Shown here: one piece after another, positions 14,280-46,483 of the stretch
How the letters are laid out: the number at the start of each line of letters is the position of its first letter
Position numbering within the stretch: position 1 is the first letter of the stretch
DNA from: Peptococcaceae bacterium
Lineage (GTDB): Bacteria > Bacillota > Desulfotomaculia > Desulfotomaculales > Pelotomaculaceae
Assembly (NCBI GenBank): GCA_012518875.1
Contig: JAAYRI010000122.1
Location: forward strand, 1 to 53,870
Length of the DNA stretch: 53,870 nucleotides
Direction: 5' to 3'
Notes under the pieces: generated by a model
What the model was told of the DNA's origin: nothing
The model's database searches: none
Seen by the model: the letters and a program-made list of their open reading frames with translations, nothing else
Translations under genes and position numbers: made by a program

Positions 14280-14621
14280 TAAATGTTCTTCCCCTTTCTT
14301 TGTGTGAACATCCTATAATATTTTGTATTTTTGTCCTTTACCCAAAGCAATACCTGCAAATTGCCAAAAAAAATTACTATGCGGGGGTTTTTTGATATAA
14401 TAACCTTAAAATACTGGAAGCCGACCCTGCCATATGTAATATTATAAGGCTTTTGGTTGTTTTTTTTAACCATCAGTATTTAACATTACTGGTAGAGGTA
14501 AGAGGGTAATGGCTTTCCTTGTTGAAAGGTATACATAAATCATATTAGAAAAATTTATTAACACTGCAACATTTTAGCACAGTATGGATTGCTGGATGAT
14601 GAAGAGGGTAGGTGAAGATAT

Positions 14622-17227: not shown

Positions 17228-17256
17228 TTGACATGTTATGTTGACGTCTGTATCAT
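17228..17256 (+). promoter_or_regulatory. Sigma-A promoter of the T-box/paaK transcript
   Basis: TTGACA (17228-17233) and TATCAT (17251-17256) are separated by 17 bases, placing a start site a few bases before the T-box structure. Confidence 0.7.
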
Positions 17257-17269
17257 AGGTATTAATTGA

Positions 17270-17558
17270 TATAACCTTAGAAACTATGAAGTGGAAAAGT
17301 AGTTGGGAAACAGCTCTGCAGGGAGAAAGTGTCGTGATTGAAAATGCTTTCATTGCATGACCCAATGAAGTTCTCCACCGAGTTTCCGGGCTGAAACCAG
17401 ATTTGGTAAGTAGGCCCGGCCGGAAGCTTCTACCGTTAAAGGGAAGGGGGTATAAGGAATCATTCCCGTACCCTGCTGTGAGTGGACTTCTTTATGAAGT
17501 CAAATAGGGTGGTACCGCGAAACCAGCTTTTCGCCCCTTAGGGGCGAAAAGCTTTTTT
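17270..17558 (+). promoter_or_regulatory. T-box leader, complete sensor plus first antiterminator/terminator
   Basis: Stem I begins near 17275 (AGTA at 17298-17301; apical helix GGAGAA/TTCTCC). The conserved stem II/F-box part has GTAGG...CGG...CCGTTA (17409-17437). Stem III is GACTTC/GAAGTC and the T-box is AGGGTGGTACCGCG (17506-17519). The terminator is a 13-bp stem (17525-17537 with 17541-17553) plus T run. Uncharged tRNA pairing at the specifier and T-box would stabilise the antiterminator. By position the specifier lies in CTGAAACCAG (17391-17400) and would read CCA (Pro) or ACC (Thr), but I cannot fix the register. Confidence 0.88.
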
Positions 17559-17588
17559 GTTTTACCGGCCCAGTGCAGATAAGGGGAT

Positions 17589-17681
17589 TTCTTGACCTTT
17601 TAAGAAGGGTTATTTTATTAACCAAACGGGGTGGTACCGCGGATAGCCACAGCTTTCGTCCCCACGAGGGCTGTGGTTTTA
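17589..17681 (+). promoter_or_regulatory. Second T-box antiterminator/terminator module without its own specifier stem
   Basis: A second stem III (TTCTT/AAGAA at 17589-17607), a second T-box GGGGTGGTACCGCGG (17628-17642) and a second terminator (CCACAGC at 17647-17653 with GCTGTGG at 17670-17676, followed by T residues). Only about 30 bases separate it from the first terminator, far too few for another stem I, so one sensor appears to serve two decision modules. Confidence 0.8.
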
Positions 17682-17842
17682 TTTGTGCTTTTTCTAAATG
17701 AACTATCAGTGTGGTTGGCCCCTTTGGCAACACGTAGGACATGGTCATCTAGGCCAGGTTGAAAAAGGCAGGGGTGAGATCATTCTTGTGAATAAAATGT
17801 GGCCATTGCTGATCGCGTCCTGGTAATGGAGAGGGGTAGTAA

Positions 17843-17893
17843 ATGGTAAGCGGTGGATGTCCACTGGAAATGATTGGGGATATAAGGATTTAA
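17843..17893 (+). CDS. Possible 16-codon leader peptide upstream of paaK
   Basis: ATG at 17843 follows GGAGAGGGG with suitable spacing and opens a 16-codon frame (MVSGGCPLEMIGDIRI). A hairpin (CTGCCTGG with CCAGGTGG, about 17897-17935) followed by TTTTT lies between it and paaK. It may be a translated leader or chance. The rest of 17682-17962 shows nothing else. Confidence 0.25.
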   Translation: MVSGGCPLEMIGDIRI

Positions 17894-17962
17894 CGGCCTG
17901 CCTGGGTCGCATGAGGGCTGTGCAGCCAGGTGGCGGTTTTTAAAACAGGAGGGTGAGGTAAA

Positions 17963-19300
17963 TTGATTCAGTCATCAGTAAAAAAAATACAGACATCATA
18001 TTATGATCCCGAGCATGAGACCATGTCCAGGGAACGACTGGCACATCTGCAGTTGCAACGGTTGCAGACAACTGTGAAAAGGGTTTACAAGTCTGTCCCA
18101 TTTTACAGGGATGCATTTAAAAGCAGGGGGCTTGAGCCAGGGGATATTAAAACCCTGGATGATATTAAAAAGCTACCGTTCACATACAAACAGGACCTGC
18201 GGGATAATTATCCCTACGGGCTTTTTGCCGTGCCTCTGGAGAAGATTGTTAGGCTGCATGCTTCTTCAGGAACCACTGGAAAACCTTCCGTAGTAGGTTA
18301 CACTAAAAATGATATTGCAAACTGGGCGGACCTGGTAGCCCGTTGTCTGGCTATGGCCGGGGGTAGCAAAGAAGATGTGATCCAAATTGCATATGGCTAT
18401 GGCCTTTTTACCGGAGGGCTGGGGCTTCACTATGGAGTTGAGCGTTTGGGTGCCTCTGTGGTGCCTGCATCCGGCGGTAATACTGATCGCCAGCTCATGT
18501 TAATGCAAGATTTCGGTACCTCTATTCTTGCCTGCACCCCGTCTTATGCGCTTTTCCTGGCAGAAGAAGGGATTGCGGCAGGGATAGACTTTAAAAAGCT
18601 ACCGATTAGGGCGGGTATTTTTGGTGCCGAGCCCTGGACTGATAACATGAAAAAACAAATTGAATCGAAAATGGACATTACTGCCCTGGATATTTATGGC
18701 CTCAGCGAGGTTATGGGGCCGGGGGTGGCAATGGAGTGCATGGAAAAAGAAGGTTCCCATATAGCCGAGGACCATTTTATCGCCGAGGTCATTAATCCGG
18801 ATACCGGCGATGTCCTTCCCTATGGTGAACAGGGTGAACTGGTTTTAACCACCATCACAAAGGAGGGGATACCGCTACTTCGTTACCGCACAAGGGATAT
18901 TTCTACCCTGCACCCGGAAATATGTGCCTGTGGCCGAACCCATATGAGAATGAAGCGGGTGGCCGGTCGCACTGATGACATGCTAATCATCAGGGGTGTC
19001 AACGTCTTCCCGTCCCAGGTGGAAAGTGTCTTGCTTGAATTTGGTGAGACAGAGCCGCATTATTTGTTAGTGGTTGATCGAAAAGGTGATCTAGATGCTC
19101 TTGAGATATGGGTAGAATTATCAGAAAAAATGTTTTCCGATAAAGTAAAACATCTGGAAACACTAGAAGGAAGAATCCGCCACAGGATCCTTAGTGTGCT
19201 CAATATCAATGTCAAGATTAGGTTTGTGGAACCGAGAACTATCCCTAGGAGCGAAGGTAAAGCAAAGCGGGTAATGGACAGGCGGGATCTGCAGGGTTAA
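17963..19300 (+). CDS. paaK: Phenylacetate-CoA ligase
   Basis: A 445-residue AMP-forming ligase of the PaaK family, which makes phenylacetyl-CoA from phenylacetate, ATP and CoA. Visible motifs: adenylate P-loop ASSGTTGKP near residue 97, FGAEPW, DIYGLSE near 245 and RYRTRDIS before the C-terminal domain. The start is TTG at 17963 after GGAGGG; no ATG is available. In anaerobic Firmicutes PaaK often works on arylacetates from aromatic amino acid fermentation, which would fit amino-acid control by the T-box just upstream, but no indolepyruvate oxidoreductase is in the window. It is followed by a terminator, so monocistronic. Confidence 0.92.
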
Positions 19301-41755: not shown

Positions 41756-43171
41756 ATGTTTATGAACGGTATTCAGCAACATGCTGCTGTTGGTTACAAG
41801 TATTGGTCTCCTGCAGAAACCATGCCGCATAAAGAGATGAAGAAGCTTCAGTTGGCTAGGTTACGTGAGCAAATAAACTATCTTTGGGAAAAGAGCCCAT
41901 TTTATCGCCAAAAATGGGAAGAAAGCAATTTTTGCCCGGCATTATTGAGAACGCTTGATGATATCAATCGTATACCGATTCTTCATAAGGAAGAAATAAG
42001 ATTAAGTCAAGAGCAGGATCCTCCCTATGGAATGATGAGTGTCCCAGGCAGGGGGCCATTCATTCGCATCGGTATGACCTCAGGGACCACTGGTGAACCA
42101 GTGATTATACCATTTACAGAGGAAGACTACTTTGGGGTTTACTGCGCTGGTGCGGCCCGCGCTGTGTGGGCTGCGGGAATTAGAAAGGAAGACGTTGTGC
42201 ACGCTGCTTTCGGTTTCACTCCTTTTCTTGGGTTGGCCGCTGCCTATGACTGTTGTGAGCATTTGATAGGTTCCCTGGTTATACCGGGCGGTATTTGGAG
42301 CAGTCTAATGCGGCTAACAATGATTAGAAAATTGGGTATAACGGTATTAATGGGTACGCCTACTTATCTTTTGCACCTGGCTAAGGTTGCCGAGGAGAAC
42401 GGTATTGATGCCCGGACCCTGGGGATAAAAACAATTCTTACTGCTGGTGAACCTGGCAAGATGTCTATCCCGAACACCGGCGTGCGTTTGGAGGAAGCTT
42501 GGGGAGCAAGAATATTTGATTATTGCGGTACTCAAGAAACCCATTATTTGGCCTGGCTGTGTGACGAAAATGTGGGGCATATAAATGAAGATCTTGCATA
42601 TTGCGAGGTGTTGGACCCGGAAACAGACGAACCGGTTCCCCCAGGTGAATCAGGGAAGCTGGTGGTTACTGACCTAATAAGCAAGACCCATCCCTGTATT
42701 AGGTTTGAAACAGGTGACCTGGTCAAGGGCATAGAAGCGGGCGCAACCTGTGCTTGTGGCCGGACCCTAAGCGTCATGAAAGGATTTATGGGCAGGGTAG
42801 GGGACATAATTAAGATACGCGGGGTGTGTGTGTCAGTTGCGGGGATAGAAAACGTGATCAGGGGAATATCGGAATGTTCTGACAGTTACGAGTATATTGC
42901 ATCTAAGACAGAAGGCGGAATGGATAAAATAACCGTGCGGGTGGAGCCAAAGTATGATGTGGATTCTGGACAATGGGATGATTTGCGCAAGAAAATTGCA
43001 CAAAAACTACAACTATCATTTATGGTAAATATGGATGTTGAACTGTTGGCCCCGGGCACACTTCCAGTTTATGAGTTGAAAGCAAAGCGTTTCCGTGATA
43101 ACAGGCCCCCAATAACAGATACAGGAGAGGTATCAACAAAGGCGGCCGAAAAAGCCACGGCCAGGGTATGA
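41756..43171 (+). CDS. PaaK-family aryl/acyl-CoA ligase
   Basis: A 471-residue AMP-forming ligase related to phenylacetate-CoA ligase: MTSGTTGEP adenylate loop near residue 104, the DYCGTQE motif in the position where PaaK has DIYGLSE, FETGDL near 318, and GFMGRVGDIIKIRGV before the small C-terminal domain. It is clearly diverged from the paaK at 18 kb, so another carboxylic acid substrate is likely. Start ATG 41756 or 41762, both with weak AGAGAG ribosome sites. Preceded by element A; a hairpin separates it from the CoA transferase. Confidence 0.88.
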   Translation: MFMNGIQQHAAVGYKYWSPAETMPHKEMKKLQLARLREQINYLWEKSPFYRQKWEESNFCPALLRTLDDINRIPILHKEEIRLSQEQDPPYGMMSVPGRGPFIRIGMTSGTTGEPVIIPFTEEDYFGVYCAGAARAVWAAGIRKEDVVHAAFGFTPFLGLAAAYDCCEHLIGSLVIPGGIWSSLMRLTMIRKLGITVLMGTPTYLLHLAKVAEENGIDARTLGIKTILTAGEPGKMSIPNTGVRLEEAWGARIFDYCGTQETHYLAWLCDENVGHINEDLAYCEVLDPETDEPVPPGESGKLVVTDLISKTHPCIRFETGDLVKGIEAGATCACGRTLSVMKGFMGRVGDIIKIRGVCVSVAGIENVIRGISECSDSYEYIASKTEGGMDKITVRVEPKYDVDSGQWDDLRKKIAQKLQLSFMVNMDVELLAPGTLPVYELKAKRFRDNRPPITDTGEVSTKAAEKATARV

Positions 43172-43180
43172 AAAACAAAG

Positions 43181-43209
43181 GGCCGTTATCCCTATTGATA
43201 ACGGCCTTT
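43181..43209 (+). terminator. Hairpin/terminator between CoA ligase and CoA transferase
   Basis: Perfect 10-bp stem GGCCGTTATC (43181-43190) with GATAACGGCC (43197-43206), then TTTA. The short T run may give only partial termination, letting some transcripts continue into the CoA transferase 36 bases later, which has no visible promoter of its own. Confidence 0.65.
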
Positions 43210-43245
43210 ACTCAATTATCTCAATATAGGGCTGAATGAATAGTT

Positions 43246-44583
43246 ATGAATTATGCAGAAATGTATAAACAAAAACTCGTTGCACCTTCTGAGGCAGTCA
43301 AGGCAGTAAAGTCGGGAGATTGGGTCGAATATGGTTCTTTTTCCGGGTGTGTAGTGGCCTTGGACAAAGCCCTGGCCGCAAGAAAGGATGAGCTCAGGGA
43401 TGTAAAAATACGTTGCACCACACGTGTTGCCGGTACACCTGAAGTGGTGAAGGCTGATCCTTCCGGTCTTCATTTTTTATATAATAACTGGCATTTTAGT
43501 GCCTCTGACCGCAAGCTGGGTGATCAGGGACTTTGTTTTTATATCCCCCTGGTCTACAGTGAACTGCCTGAATACTACCGTAATTATATTGATGTTGATG
43601 TGGTAATGATCCCGGTTGCTCCTATGGATAGACACGGTTGCTTTAATTTTGGCCCCCAGGTTTCGCACACTATGGCCATGTGTGAGGCAGGGAAAACAGT
43701 CATACTAGAGGTCAACCCCAATATGCCATGTTGTCTGGGCTGGGAAAATGGGATCCACATCTCCCAGGTTGATTATATTGTTGAGGCTGACTATCCGATT
43801 CCCGAAATAGTTCCAGCCAGGCCAAATGATACTGATAGAAGGATCGCCTCCTTAATTATTGAACAGCTGTCGGATGGTTGCTGTCTGCAGCTGGGTATTG
43901 GCGGCATGCCCAATGCAGTGGGGGAAATGATTGCAGGTTCCGATTTAAAGGACCTGGGAATTCACACCGAGATGTTTGTGGACTCTATGGTGGATATGGT
44001 CGAAAATGGTCGGGTAACCGGGGCAAAGAAAAGCATAGACAGGCATAAAATAATTGCTACTATAGCCCTGGGAACCCTGAAGGTCTATGAATTCATCCAC
44101 GATAACCCTATGTGTATGTTTGTGCCTGTAAATTATACTAACGACCCCTACATAATTGGTCAGCTAGATAATTTTATATCCATTAATAGTTGCATAGATG
44201 TAGACCTTTATGGTCAGATAAACTCTGAGTCATCCGGTGCCCGGCAAATTAGTGGTACCGGGGGCTCTATTTGTTTTGCTGAAGGCTCCTTTAGATCCAA
44301 AGGGGGAAAGGGTTTTATATGCATGGCTTCAACCTTTAGCAGTGCCGGCAGGGTTTTTTCCCGAATCCGGCCGGTACTGAAACCAGGTTCAGTGGTTTCT
44401 ATTCACCGTGGCCTGGCTCCCAGTATAGTTACTGAGTATGGAATTGCCTCCCTGAAGGGCAAAACCCTTTGGCAAAGAGCAGAGGCGCTGGTTTCTATTG
44501 CCCACCCGGATTTTCGTGAGGAGTTGATTAAAAGCGCCGGGGAGATGGGTATTTGGCGCAAAAGTAATAAACGTGCATTTTAA
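43246..44583 (+). CDS. Acetyl-CoA hydrolase/transferase family CoA transferase (butyryl- or 4-hydroxybutyrate:acetate type)
   Basis: A 445-residue class I CoA transferase of the Cat1/AbfT/BUT type. It shows [12 protein letters not shown], then [12 protein letters not shown] with the expected catalytic glutamate, and [15 protein letters not shown]. It swaps CoA between an acyl-CoA and a free acid (often acetate), saving ATP. ATG at 43246 has only a weak upstream ribosome site. Follows the CoA ligase on the same strand. Together they offer two ways of activating an organic acid. Confidence 0.9.
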
Positions 44584-44645
44584 GTCTATTTTTTTACAGA
44601 TAACCGTTGCCGGTGTTGTTAAGGATGCAATATTTATAGGCATTG

Positions 44646-44708
44646 CTAATGAATGTCATCGTAAACGCATATTTCTCTTTGCTTGTTAACGGGTGGTAAT
44701 ATTAAACC
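44646..44708 (+). promoter_or_regulatory. Regulon element copy B (upstream of the second CoA transferase)
   Basis: CTAATGAATGTCATCG opens the upstream block, followed by GCATATTTCTCTTTG (44667-44681). TTCTCT (44673-44678) and TAATAT (44697-44702) are spaced 18, then AAACC. It matches copy C most closely, including TATAGGCAT just upstream. A 200-base leader follows with AATTCTGCACGTTGCAGA. Confidence 0.7.
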
Positions 44709-44908
44709 TGAATAAGGGATGTGGAATTCTGCACGTTGCAGAAGTTGATATATTCTTAATACATATTGGAAAAGAGGTGAGGCTTTTTATAAAGGCGTAG
44801 AGATAGCCTTGGAGTTATCTTGTTTTTGTAGTGGTATTGGGATTCATTGCAGATTTTTTAGTAGGGAGATTAGGATTCAAGATTAGGAACTTGAAGGGAG
44901 AAGAGACG

Positions 44909-46483
44909 ATGTCCAAAAAGTCCAAAATTATTACCCCGGAGCAGGTTGGCCCATTGGTGAAGGATGGTTCAACTATAGCATGGACCACCGCAGGCCTGTG
45001 CGGCTTTCCTGAAGAGCTGGCAATAGCGATTGAAAAGAGTTTTTTGGAAACCGGGCATCCCCGGGATCTTTTTAACACCCACAGCTGTGGTTGTGGTGAC
45101 TGGAAAACCAGAGGAATGAGCCACGTGGGTCATGAGGGCATGGTTAGAAAGCACATTGCTGGACACATTGGTGAGGCTCCTATGTTAGGGGCACTGGTTC
45201 TAAGCAATAAATGTGAATGCCACCTATTCCCACAGGGTGTTTTGACGCATTTATACCGGCAAATCGCCGGCGGAAAACCAGGTGTGCTTACGAAGGTAGG
45301 ATTGGGTACCTATGTTGACCCCCGTCGGCAGGGTGGTAAAATTAATGATATCACCAAGGATGATATGGTTGAATTAGTCAACTTCCAGGGAGAGGAATAC
45401 CTGTATTATAAGCCCTTCCAAATTGATGTTGCTATGATCCGCGGTACAACCTGCGATGAGGAAGGCAATATGACTATGGATGAGGAGCCACTGTTCCTAG
45501 AAGCGCTCCATATAGCAATGGCAGCAAAGAGAAGCGGTGGTATTGTATTTGCCCAGGTTAAATATATAGCCCAGGCCAGGACACTTAACCCCAAAACCGT
45601 TAAGGTTCCTGCCGCCCTGGTGGACTACATTGTAGTTGCTAAACCAGAAAACCACCTGCAGACCAGGGTTACATTAAATGAGCCTGCATTTGATGGGCGT
45701 ATTAGAAAGCCTCTTTCCGAGGTTACACCTATTCCTCTTGACGAGCGCAAGATTATTGGACGTAGGGCAGCTATGGAATTGAGAAAAGGCGCTATTGTCA
45801 ACATGGGCATCGGTATGCCGGATACAGTTTCCAATACTGCAGCAGATGAAAATGTAGCTGACTTGATGTCGCTCACCATCGAGTTAGGTGCCTTTGGCGG
45901 TATCCCGGCACAAGGCATGGACTTCCCGGCAGCGATTAACGCTGACTGCATTGTTGATCACCCGAGCATGTTTGACTTTTATGATGGTGGCGGGCTAGAT
46001 ATATGCTTCCTGGGGGCAGCCCAAATTGACGAAGAAGGTAATACCAACGTCAGCAAGTTTGGACCGAAGGTAGTAGGCCCGGGCGGTTATGTTAATATAT
46101 CCTCATCTTCTAAAAAGGTTGTGTACTGTGGCACAATGACCGCCAGCGGTGCAGAGTATGAGGTATCTGACGGCAAACTCAAGATTTTGAAGGAAGGCAA
46201 AATCAAGAAGTTTGTTAAGGAGTGTGAACACGTCACCTTCAGTGGTAAATACTCTGCCGAAAGAGGCCAGGAAGTAGTCTATGTTACCGAACGTGCCGTA
46301 TTTGTGCTGAAGGACGGCCAAGTGGTGTTGACTGAAATTGCACCAGGGGTAGATCTAGAAAAAGATGTTCTTTCTCAAATGGAATTCAAGCCTGTGATTT
46401 CCCCTGACTTGAAAGAAATGCCGAAAGAAATATTCCAACCCAAGTGGGGTAAGCTCAGGGAGATGTTGGTGAATGGCGACTAA
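44909..46483 (+). CDS. Acyl-CoA:acetate/3-ketoacid CoA transferase (propionate CoA-transferase type)
   Basis: A 524-residue fused alpha-beta class I CoA transferase. The catalytic glutamate lies in SLTIELGAFGGIP, and GIGMPDTVSN and GPGGYVNISSS are family landmarks. Homologues include propionate CoA-transferase and YdiF. The ATG at 44909 has GGGAGAAGAG upstream; the open frame from 44831 lies in the leader. It belongs to a family unrelated at subgroup level to the transferase at 43.2 kb, so substrates probably differ. Preceded by element B. Confidence 0.92.
   Translation: MSKKSKIITPEQVGPLVKDGSTIAWTTAGLCGFPEELAIAIEKSFLETGHPRDLFNTHSCGCGDWKTRGMSHVGHEGMVRKHIAGHIGEAPMLGALVLSNKCECHLFPQGVLTHLYRQIAGGKPGVLTKVGLGTYVDPRRQGGKINDITKDDMVELVNFQGEEYLYYKPFQIDVAMIRGTTCDEEGNMTMDEEPLFLEALHIAMAAKRSGGIVFAQVKYIAQARTLNPKTVKVPAALVDYIVVAKPENHLQTRVTLNEPAFDGRIRKPLSEVTPIPLDERKIIGRRAAMELRKGAIVNMGIGMPDTVSNTAADENVADLMSLTIELGAFGGIPAQGMDFPAAINADCIVDHPSMFDFYDGGGLDICFLGAAQIDEEGNTNVSKFGPKVVGPGGYVNISSSSKKVVYCGTMTASGAEYEVSDGKLKILKEGKIKKFVKECEHVTFSGKYSAERGQEVVYVTERAVFVLKDGQVVLTEIAPGVDLEKDVLSQMEFKPVISPDLKEMPKEIFQPKWGKLREMLVNGD

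What the first reader, a model, noticed from the sequence alone, without database searches (positions are those of the whole stretch)
17270..17681. One T-box sensor with two successive antiterminator/terminator modules
A full stem I-III T-box is followed within about 30 bases of its terminator by a second stem III, a second T-box sequence (GGGGTGGTACCGCGG) and a second terminator, without a second stem I. Passing both would require two decisions, which should sharpen repression. Tandem or partial T-boxes are known, but a sensor-less second module ahead of a phenylacetate-CoA ligase is unusual.
Basis: partly seen in the sequence, partly recalled or inferred. Interest (0 to 1): 0.65.

Follow-up and report, generated by a model that had tools for sequence, protein, structure and literature searches.

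The report
Phenylalanine T-box with duplicated switch
An RNA switch in front of a phenylacetate-activating gene has one sensor for uncharged phenylalanine tRNA followed by two stop/go hairpin modules in a row; it is real and conserved in relatives, but it belongs to an already described and fairly widespread class of 'partially tandem' T-boxes whose exact working is still untested.

Summary
Window 17277-17541 is a full T-box (Rfam RF00230, 118.7 bits). A second stem III, T-box sequence, antiterminator and terminator follow at 17608-17684, with no second stem I or II; Rfam matches only the 3' part of the model there. Two T-box motifs this close are not expected by chance (0 in 100 shuffles). 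The same leader occurs in 14 genomes of the family; 13 keep the second module, and its GGGGUGGUACCGCGGA core is invariant. The exception, a 3.03 Mb genome that looks like Pelotomaculum thermopropionicum, has the first module only. In most relatives the leader precedes a livKHMGF-paaK operon. In the window genome the transporter genes are deleted and a decayed livF piece lies between leader and paaK. The genome has a second such leader at aroF-pheA, so this is a phenylalanine regulon. A scan of ~85,000 species genomes found at least 64 structurally valid cases. The class was described in 2008 (recalled abstract, paper not held), and a 2020 review calls partially tandem T-boxes' mode of action unknown. 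Verdict: new member of a known kind. The two-step, sharper-repression reading is plausible but untested.

The parts
17228..17256 (+). sigma-70/A-type promoter: TTGACA, 17 nt, TATCAT
   Evidence: 11 of 12 matches; a TTGAC..TATCAT-like pair is visible at the same place in several orthologous leaders
17277..17541 (+). full T-box leader (stem I, II, IIA, III, antiterminator 1)
   Evidence: Rfam RF00230, 118.7 bits, model 1-219
17283..17383 (+). stem I, the only sensor for the anticodon
   Evidence: Rfam alignment; conserved in 14 leaders
17371..17373 (+). specifier UUC (Phe), in invariant UGAAGUUCUCC
   Evidence: position in the Rfam alignment; invariant in 14 leaders; same motif in the aroF-pheA leader. 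The base 3' of it is U, not the usual purine
17485..17501 (+). stem III of module 1
17506..17538 (+). antiterminator 1: A1, bulge UGGUACC (17510-17516), A2
17525..17563 (+). terminator 1 and T-run
   Evidence: 13 pairs; -23.1 kcal/mol
17564..17607 (+). linker; in relatives it carries a copy of the pre-stem III element (..CCCGUACC..), which has drifted here
17608..17623 (+). stem III of module 2 (GGUUA/UAACC)
   Evidence: 98.5% of cells paired in 13 leaders
17628..17663 (+). antiterminator 2: A1 GGGG/CCCC, bulge UGGUACC (17632-17638), A2
   Evidence: all pairs kept in 13 leaders; columns GGGGUGGUACCGCGGA invariant
17645..17684 (+). terminator 2 and T-rich tail
   Evidence: 15 pairs; -23.0 kcal/mol; compensatory A-U/G-C change
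17698..17945 (+). decayed 3' end of livF (pseudogene remnant)
   Evidence: blastn to the intact livF region of G020: 69.6% over 286 nt, E 1.4e-22; tblastn to LivF E 7e-8 with stops
17963..19300 (+). paaK, phenylacetate-CoA ligase family (start TTG)
   Evidence: TIGR02155 601 bits, curated cut-off 646

Best explanation
This is a partially tandem T-box riboswitch for phenylalanine. One sensor (stem I with specifier UUC, plus stem II) is followed by two complete switch modules, each with its own stem III, antiterminator and terminator. With charged tRNA-Phe both terminators form and transcription stops at the first, or at the second if polymerase leaks past. With uncharged tRNA-Phe held by stem I, its NCCA end pairs with the UGGU bulge of antiterminator 1; polymerase then makes module 2, where the same test is repeated before the gene is reached. 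Both tests must be passed, so basal leak is the product of two leaks. The output was ancestrally an amino-acid or aryl-acid ABC importer plus PaaK. In this lineage the importer is deleted and the leader now drives paaK alone. Shown: anatomy, conservation, ancestral operon, deletion, matching tRNA-Phe discriminator in relatives. Inferred: that module 2 is read by tRNA at all, that the same stem I-bound tRNA serves it, and the effect on repression.
For: Full T-box plus a partial one lacking stem I. Orthologous leader in 14 genomes, module 2 in 13. Module 2 core invariant, including the UGGUACC bulge, which has no role in the terminator hairpin and so is best explained by reading the tRNA acceptor end. 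In both modules the terminator is more stable than the canonical antiterminator in every genome (module 1 mean -15.9 against -8.5 kcal/mol, module 2 -25.7 against -11.7), so the default is off unless a ligand helps. tRNA-Phe(GAA) in five relatives ends GCACCA, i.e. discriminator A73, which matches UGGU in both modules. The genome has a second partially tandem Phe T-box at aroF-pheA, 294 identities in 393 aligned positions with this leader. Same architecture in 64 loci of the census.
Against: No experiment. Covariation is weak (one two-sided change), so structural support rests mostly on conservation among related genomes. In the window genus antiterminator 2 is weak (-7.1 against -14.9 kcal/mol in most relatives) while terminator 2 stays strong, so module 2 could be drifting towards a plain terminator. 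Module 2 is dispensable: the G010 leader survives without it. tRNA-Phe itself was not found in the incomplete window genome.
Confidence: 0.75

Rival explanations
1. Module 2 is a plain back-up terminator that no longer reads tRNA; it only lowers basal leak by a constant factor.
For: Terminator 2 is very stable (-23 to -30 kcal/mol); antiterminator 2 is weak in the window genus.
Against: Stem III-2, the UGGUACC bulge and both antiterminator arms are invariant or always paired in 13 genomes of several genera; a plain terminator would not preserve an unpaired bulge.
Confidence: 0.12
2. Module 2 is read by a second uncharged tRNA that binds through its NCCA end and stem III alone, without codon recognition.
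For: Module 2 carries its own stem III and a complete antiterminator; nothing tethers it to stem I except the linker.
Against: NCCA pairing alone is weak and not specific for Phe; T-box recognition is known to need the stem I contact (established knowledge).
Confidence: 0.1
3. A degenerate full tandem T-box in which a second stem I was lost; module 2 is a fossil.
For: Full tandem T-boxes are known; the linker between the modules is variable.
Against: No trace of a stem I in any of 13 leaders; the linker is short in all of them; the core shows no decay.
Confidence: 0.05

Closest known systems
T-boxes with duplicated terminator-antiterminator elements (Vitreschak et al. 2008, RNA 14:717; abstract recalled, paper not held in the library), called 'partially tandem T-boxes' in PMC7583486
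   Same: One sensor followed by two antiterminator/terminator modules. Same plan in this genome's aroF-pheA leader and in 64 census loci.
   Different: Only the downstream genes (livKHMGF-paaK, reduced here to paaK) and the lineage. Whether this very locus was in the 2008 list could not be checked.
Full tandem T-boxes (e.g. thrS in Bacillota, PMC12452182; Enterococcus histidine transporter operon, PMC9413887)
   Same: Two termination decisions in series; a sharper response has been proposed for double T-boxes (PMC9413887).
   Different: Each unit there is described as having its own sensor; here module 2 has none.
Tandem riboswitches with multiple expression platforms (PMC9481103)
   Same: Two expression platforms in series, pseudo-cooperative output.
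   Different: There each platform has its own aptamer; here one aptamer serves two platforms.

Membership tests
T-box riboswitch (RF00230) | Match to the family covariance model above the curated score | tested here: met
   17277-17541, 118.7 bits against 93, model 1-219
T-box riboswitch (RF00230) | Stem I with specifier codon for the regulated amino acid | tested here: met
   UUC in invariant UGAAGUUCUCC; same in the aroF-pheA leader
T-box riboswitch (RF00230) | UGGN bulge complementary to the discriminator base of the cognate tRNA | tested here: met
   UGGU in both modules; tRNA-Phe of five relatives has A73; tRNA-Phe not found in the window's own incomplete genome
T-box riboswitch (RF00230) | Mutually exclusive antiterminator and terminator | tested here: met
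   Both modules, all leaders
T-box riboswitch (RF00230) | Read-through induced by uncharged tRNA | not testable with these tools
   needs in vitro transcription
Partially tandem T-box (duplicated terminator-antiterminator) | Second antiterminator/terminator module, no second stem I | tested here: met
   partial Rfam hit only, model 124-219; T-box motifs 122 nt apart
Partially tandem T-box (duplicated terminator-antiterminator) | Second module conserved as a working switch | tested here: met
   13 of 14 leaders; core invariant; antiterminator and terminator pairs kept
Full tandem T-box | Second complete stem I | tested here: not met
   No stem I hit between terminators or before paaK; that stretch is linker and livF remnant

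The most novel reading that the evidence does not exclude
One tRNA-Phe, held by a single stem I, hands its acceptor end from antiterminator 1 to antiterminator 2 as polymerase moves on, so that one sensor serves two expression platforms in series and works as a time-delayed double check of charging (a form of kinetic proofreading).
Probability: 0.4. Interest if true: 0.55.

Novelty: new member of a known kind. Interest (0 to 1): 0.33.

Why it matters
[quoted passage not shown] This locus offers a natural comparison: orthologous Phe leaders with two modules (13 genomes) and with one (G010), all with the same kind of sensor, so the value of the second module can be measured directly. It also ties paaK and a LIV-type importer to phenylalanine supply rather than only to degradation, because the same sensor type controls aroF-pheA.

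Tried and rejected
(1) Third module or other riboswitch in 17697-17962: no Rfam family at gathering score; the best weak hits were the tail of the T-box and a 13.7-bit chance match. The folding (z -2.3) and the terminator-like hairpin near 17900-17940 are explained by decayed livF coding sequence. (2) A leader peptide starting at 17699 (42 codons, four Trp, seen by eye): the stretch is livF remnant, dropped. (3) UGGUAAC as a mark of first modules: among the loci fetched, 11 of 18 T-box-like UGGNAAC sites are first modules of tandems and one more has a degenerate second box, but 6 are single T-boxes, so it is a tendency only. (4) Internal duplication of module 1 as the source of module 2: the pre-stem III parts are more alike than shuffles in most relatives but not clearly in the window genome itself; likely but old. 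(5) The census pattern also hit GC-rich coding repeats (Streptomyces and others); these were removed by the structural filter. (6) The 2008 RNA paper and the 2009 MMBR review were not held; Wels et al. 2008 (PMC2494555) does not use the word tandem. (7) No held paper on aryl-acid reductive carboxylation met the search terms.

Full report
Observation. The window holds a complete T-box leader at 17277-17541 (RF00230, 118.7 bits) and, downstream, a partial one that matches only the 3' part of the family model (model 124-219, 155-216). The partial one has a stem III (17608-17623), a T-box sequence with UGGUACC bulge (17632-17638), an antiterminator (17628-17663) and a terminator with T-rich tail (17645-17684). 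A strong promoter match, TTGACA-17-TATCAT, lies at 17228-17256. Two T-box motifs at this spacing occur once in the window and never in 100 shuffles. No stem I lies between the terminators or before the gene.

Relatives. PaaK orthologues at 75% identity or more were found in 14 genomes of the family including the window's own. An orthologous T-box leader lies upstream of paaK in 13 of them, and in G019 it lies at the end of another contig. One relative contig (G024:C51, 10,141 bases) is the record titled Pelotomaculum sp. UBA3103, so the family is that of Pelotomaculum. G010 is one 3,025,375-base contig, which from memory is the size of P. thermopropionicum SI. Thirteen of 14 leaders carry module 2; G010 has module 1 only and then paaK directly.

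Conservation. In the 13 second modules the sixteen columns GGGGUGGUACCGCGGA are invariant, all nine antiterminator pairs are kept, and the terminator is fully paired with one compensatory change, A-U to G-C. The bulge UGGUACC is not part of the terminator hairpin, so its invariance points to tRNA reading. The bulge of module 1 is less constant: UGGUAAC in seven leaders. The canonical antiterminator is always less stable than the terminator, as expected of a switch that is off by default. In the window's genus antiterminator 2 is weaker than in the other genera (about -7 against -12 to -15 kcal/mol), which biases module 2 further towards termination.

Specificity. The specifier position in the Rfam alignment reads UUC (17371-17373), inside UGAAGUUCUCC, which is invariant in 14 leaders. 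tRNA-Phe(GAA) genes of five relatives end in GCACCA, giving discriminator A73, complementary to the U of UGGU in both modules. tRNA-Phe was not found in the window's own genome, which is 80% complete. The base after the specifier is U rather than the usual purine, a small deviation.

Target. In G024, G011 and G012 the leader stands before a full operon of a LIV-type importer followed by paaK; in G020, G001-G004 and G013 the distances and the livF sequence before paaK fit the same order. In G000, G018 and G022 the importer genes are gone, and the 250 nt between leader and paaK in the window is decayed livF (blastn 69.6% over 286 nt, E 1.4e-22; tblastn with stops). G010 lacks both the importer genes and module 2 at this place. 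So the pairing 'sensor-less module ahead of paaK' is the result of a deletion, not of a design for paaK. The genome has a second partially tandem Phe T-box in front of aroF and pheA (genes named from their translated sequence by eye), clearly a paralogue of this leader (294 identities in 393 aligned positions). Phe T-boxes thus control synthesis (aroF-pheA) and import or salvage. Turning PaaK on during Phe shortage suggests, by inference, that PaaK works here in the direction of Phe supply (phenylacetate to phenylacetyl-CoA to phenylpyruvate by an indolepyruvate-type oxidoreductase); another paaK of this genome sits next to genes that read as iorA and iorB (read by eye). PaaK scores 601 bits to TIGR02155, just under the curated cut-off of 646, so the exact substrate is not certain.

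How common. Sixty-four of these pass a filter requiring two antiterminators and two terminators. They include Lactobacillaceae, Leuconostoc, Enterococcus and Tetragenococcus (proteins that read as amino-acid ABC permeases), Syntrophomonadaceae (sequences that read as aroF and trpE), Gracilibacter, Veillonellales and Peptococcaceae. The presence of a stem I before the first module was not checked for each of them.

Prior knowledge. Vitreschak et al. 2008 described, in the abstract as I recall it, a new structural class of T-boxes with duplicated terminator-antiterminator elements; the paper is not held. [quoted passage not shown] PMC9413887 notes double T-boxes and the proposal of a sharper response, citing the 2008 paper. 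The finding is therefore a new, well-supported member of a known kind.

Mechanism. Best-supported: a serial double check with one sensor. Shown are anatomy, conservation, default-off energetics and the matching discriminator; inferred are tRNA reading by module 2, use of the same tRNA, and lower leak. Rivals are a plain back-up terminator, a second non-specific tRNA, and a fossil of a full tandem; conservation of the bulge argues against the first and third.

A by-product of more interest than the finding itself: in the leuS T-box leader of this family, the place of stem III is taken by a complete tRNA-Ala(GGC) gene, including CCA, in eight genomes of several genera. It is listed under things noticed in passing.

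Noticed in passing
L002 1554-1628(-) = G000:C207 about 14326-14400; also L286, L287, L288, L290, L291, L202, L203: In the leuS T-box leader (specifier CUC) an intact tRNA-Ala(GGC) gene with CCA end sits between stem II/IIA and the antiterminator, where stem III should be. Found in G000, G018, G019, G020, G010, G011, G024 and G023; in G002, G004, G012, G013 and G014 the same place holds other sequence with no tRNA gene detected, in some perhaps a degenerate tRNA. A tRNA gene used as, or hidden in, a T-box domain would be worth its own study (one literature search found nothing on it).
   Followed up: partly
G000:C207 11259-11654(-), locus L010: Second partially tandem Phe T-box in the same genome, in front of aroF-pheA; first module UGGUAAC, second UGGUACC.
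   Followed up: partly
module 1 of leaders in G020, G012, G013, G001, G002, G003, G004; likely aroF-pheA leaders in G000, G018, G022, G011, G010: The first module's T-box bulge often reads UGGUAAC instead of UGGUACC, while the second module keeps UGGUACC; it also occurs in some single T-boxes. Its effect on tRNA reading is unknown.
   Followed up: partly
window 17698-17945: Decayed livF; G022 shows a differently deleted livF at the same place, so decay went on separately in the two lineages.
   Followed up: yes
window 41756-46483: A diverged paaK-like gene (TIGR02155 223 bits) followed by two genes that look like CoA transferases.
   Followed up: no
L030 (G014:C70): A single T-box stands directly before another paaK (56% identical), with UUC at a likely specifier place: a second link between Phe T-box and paaK.
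   Followed up: no
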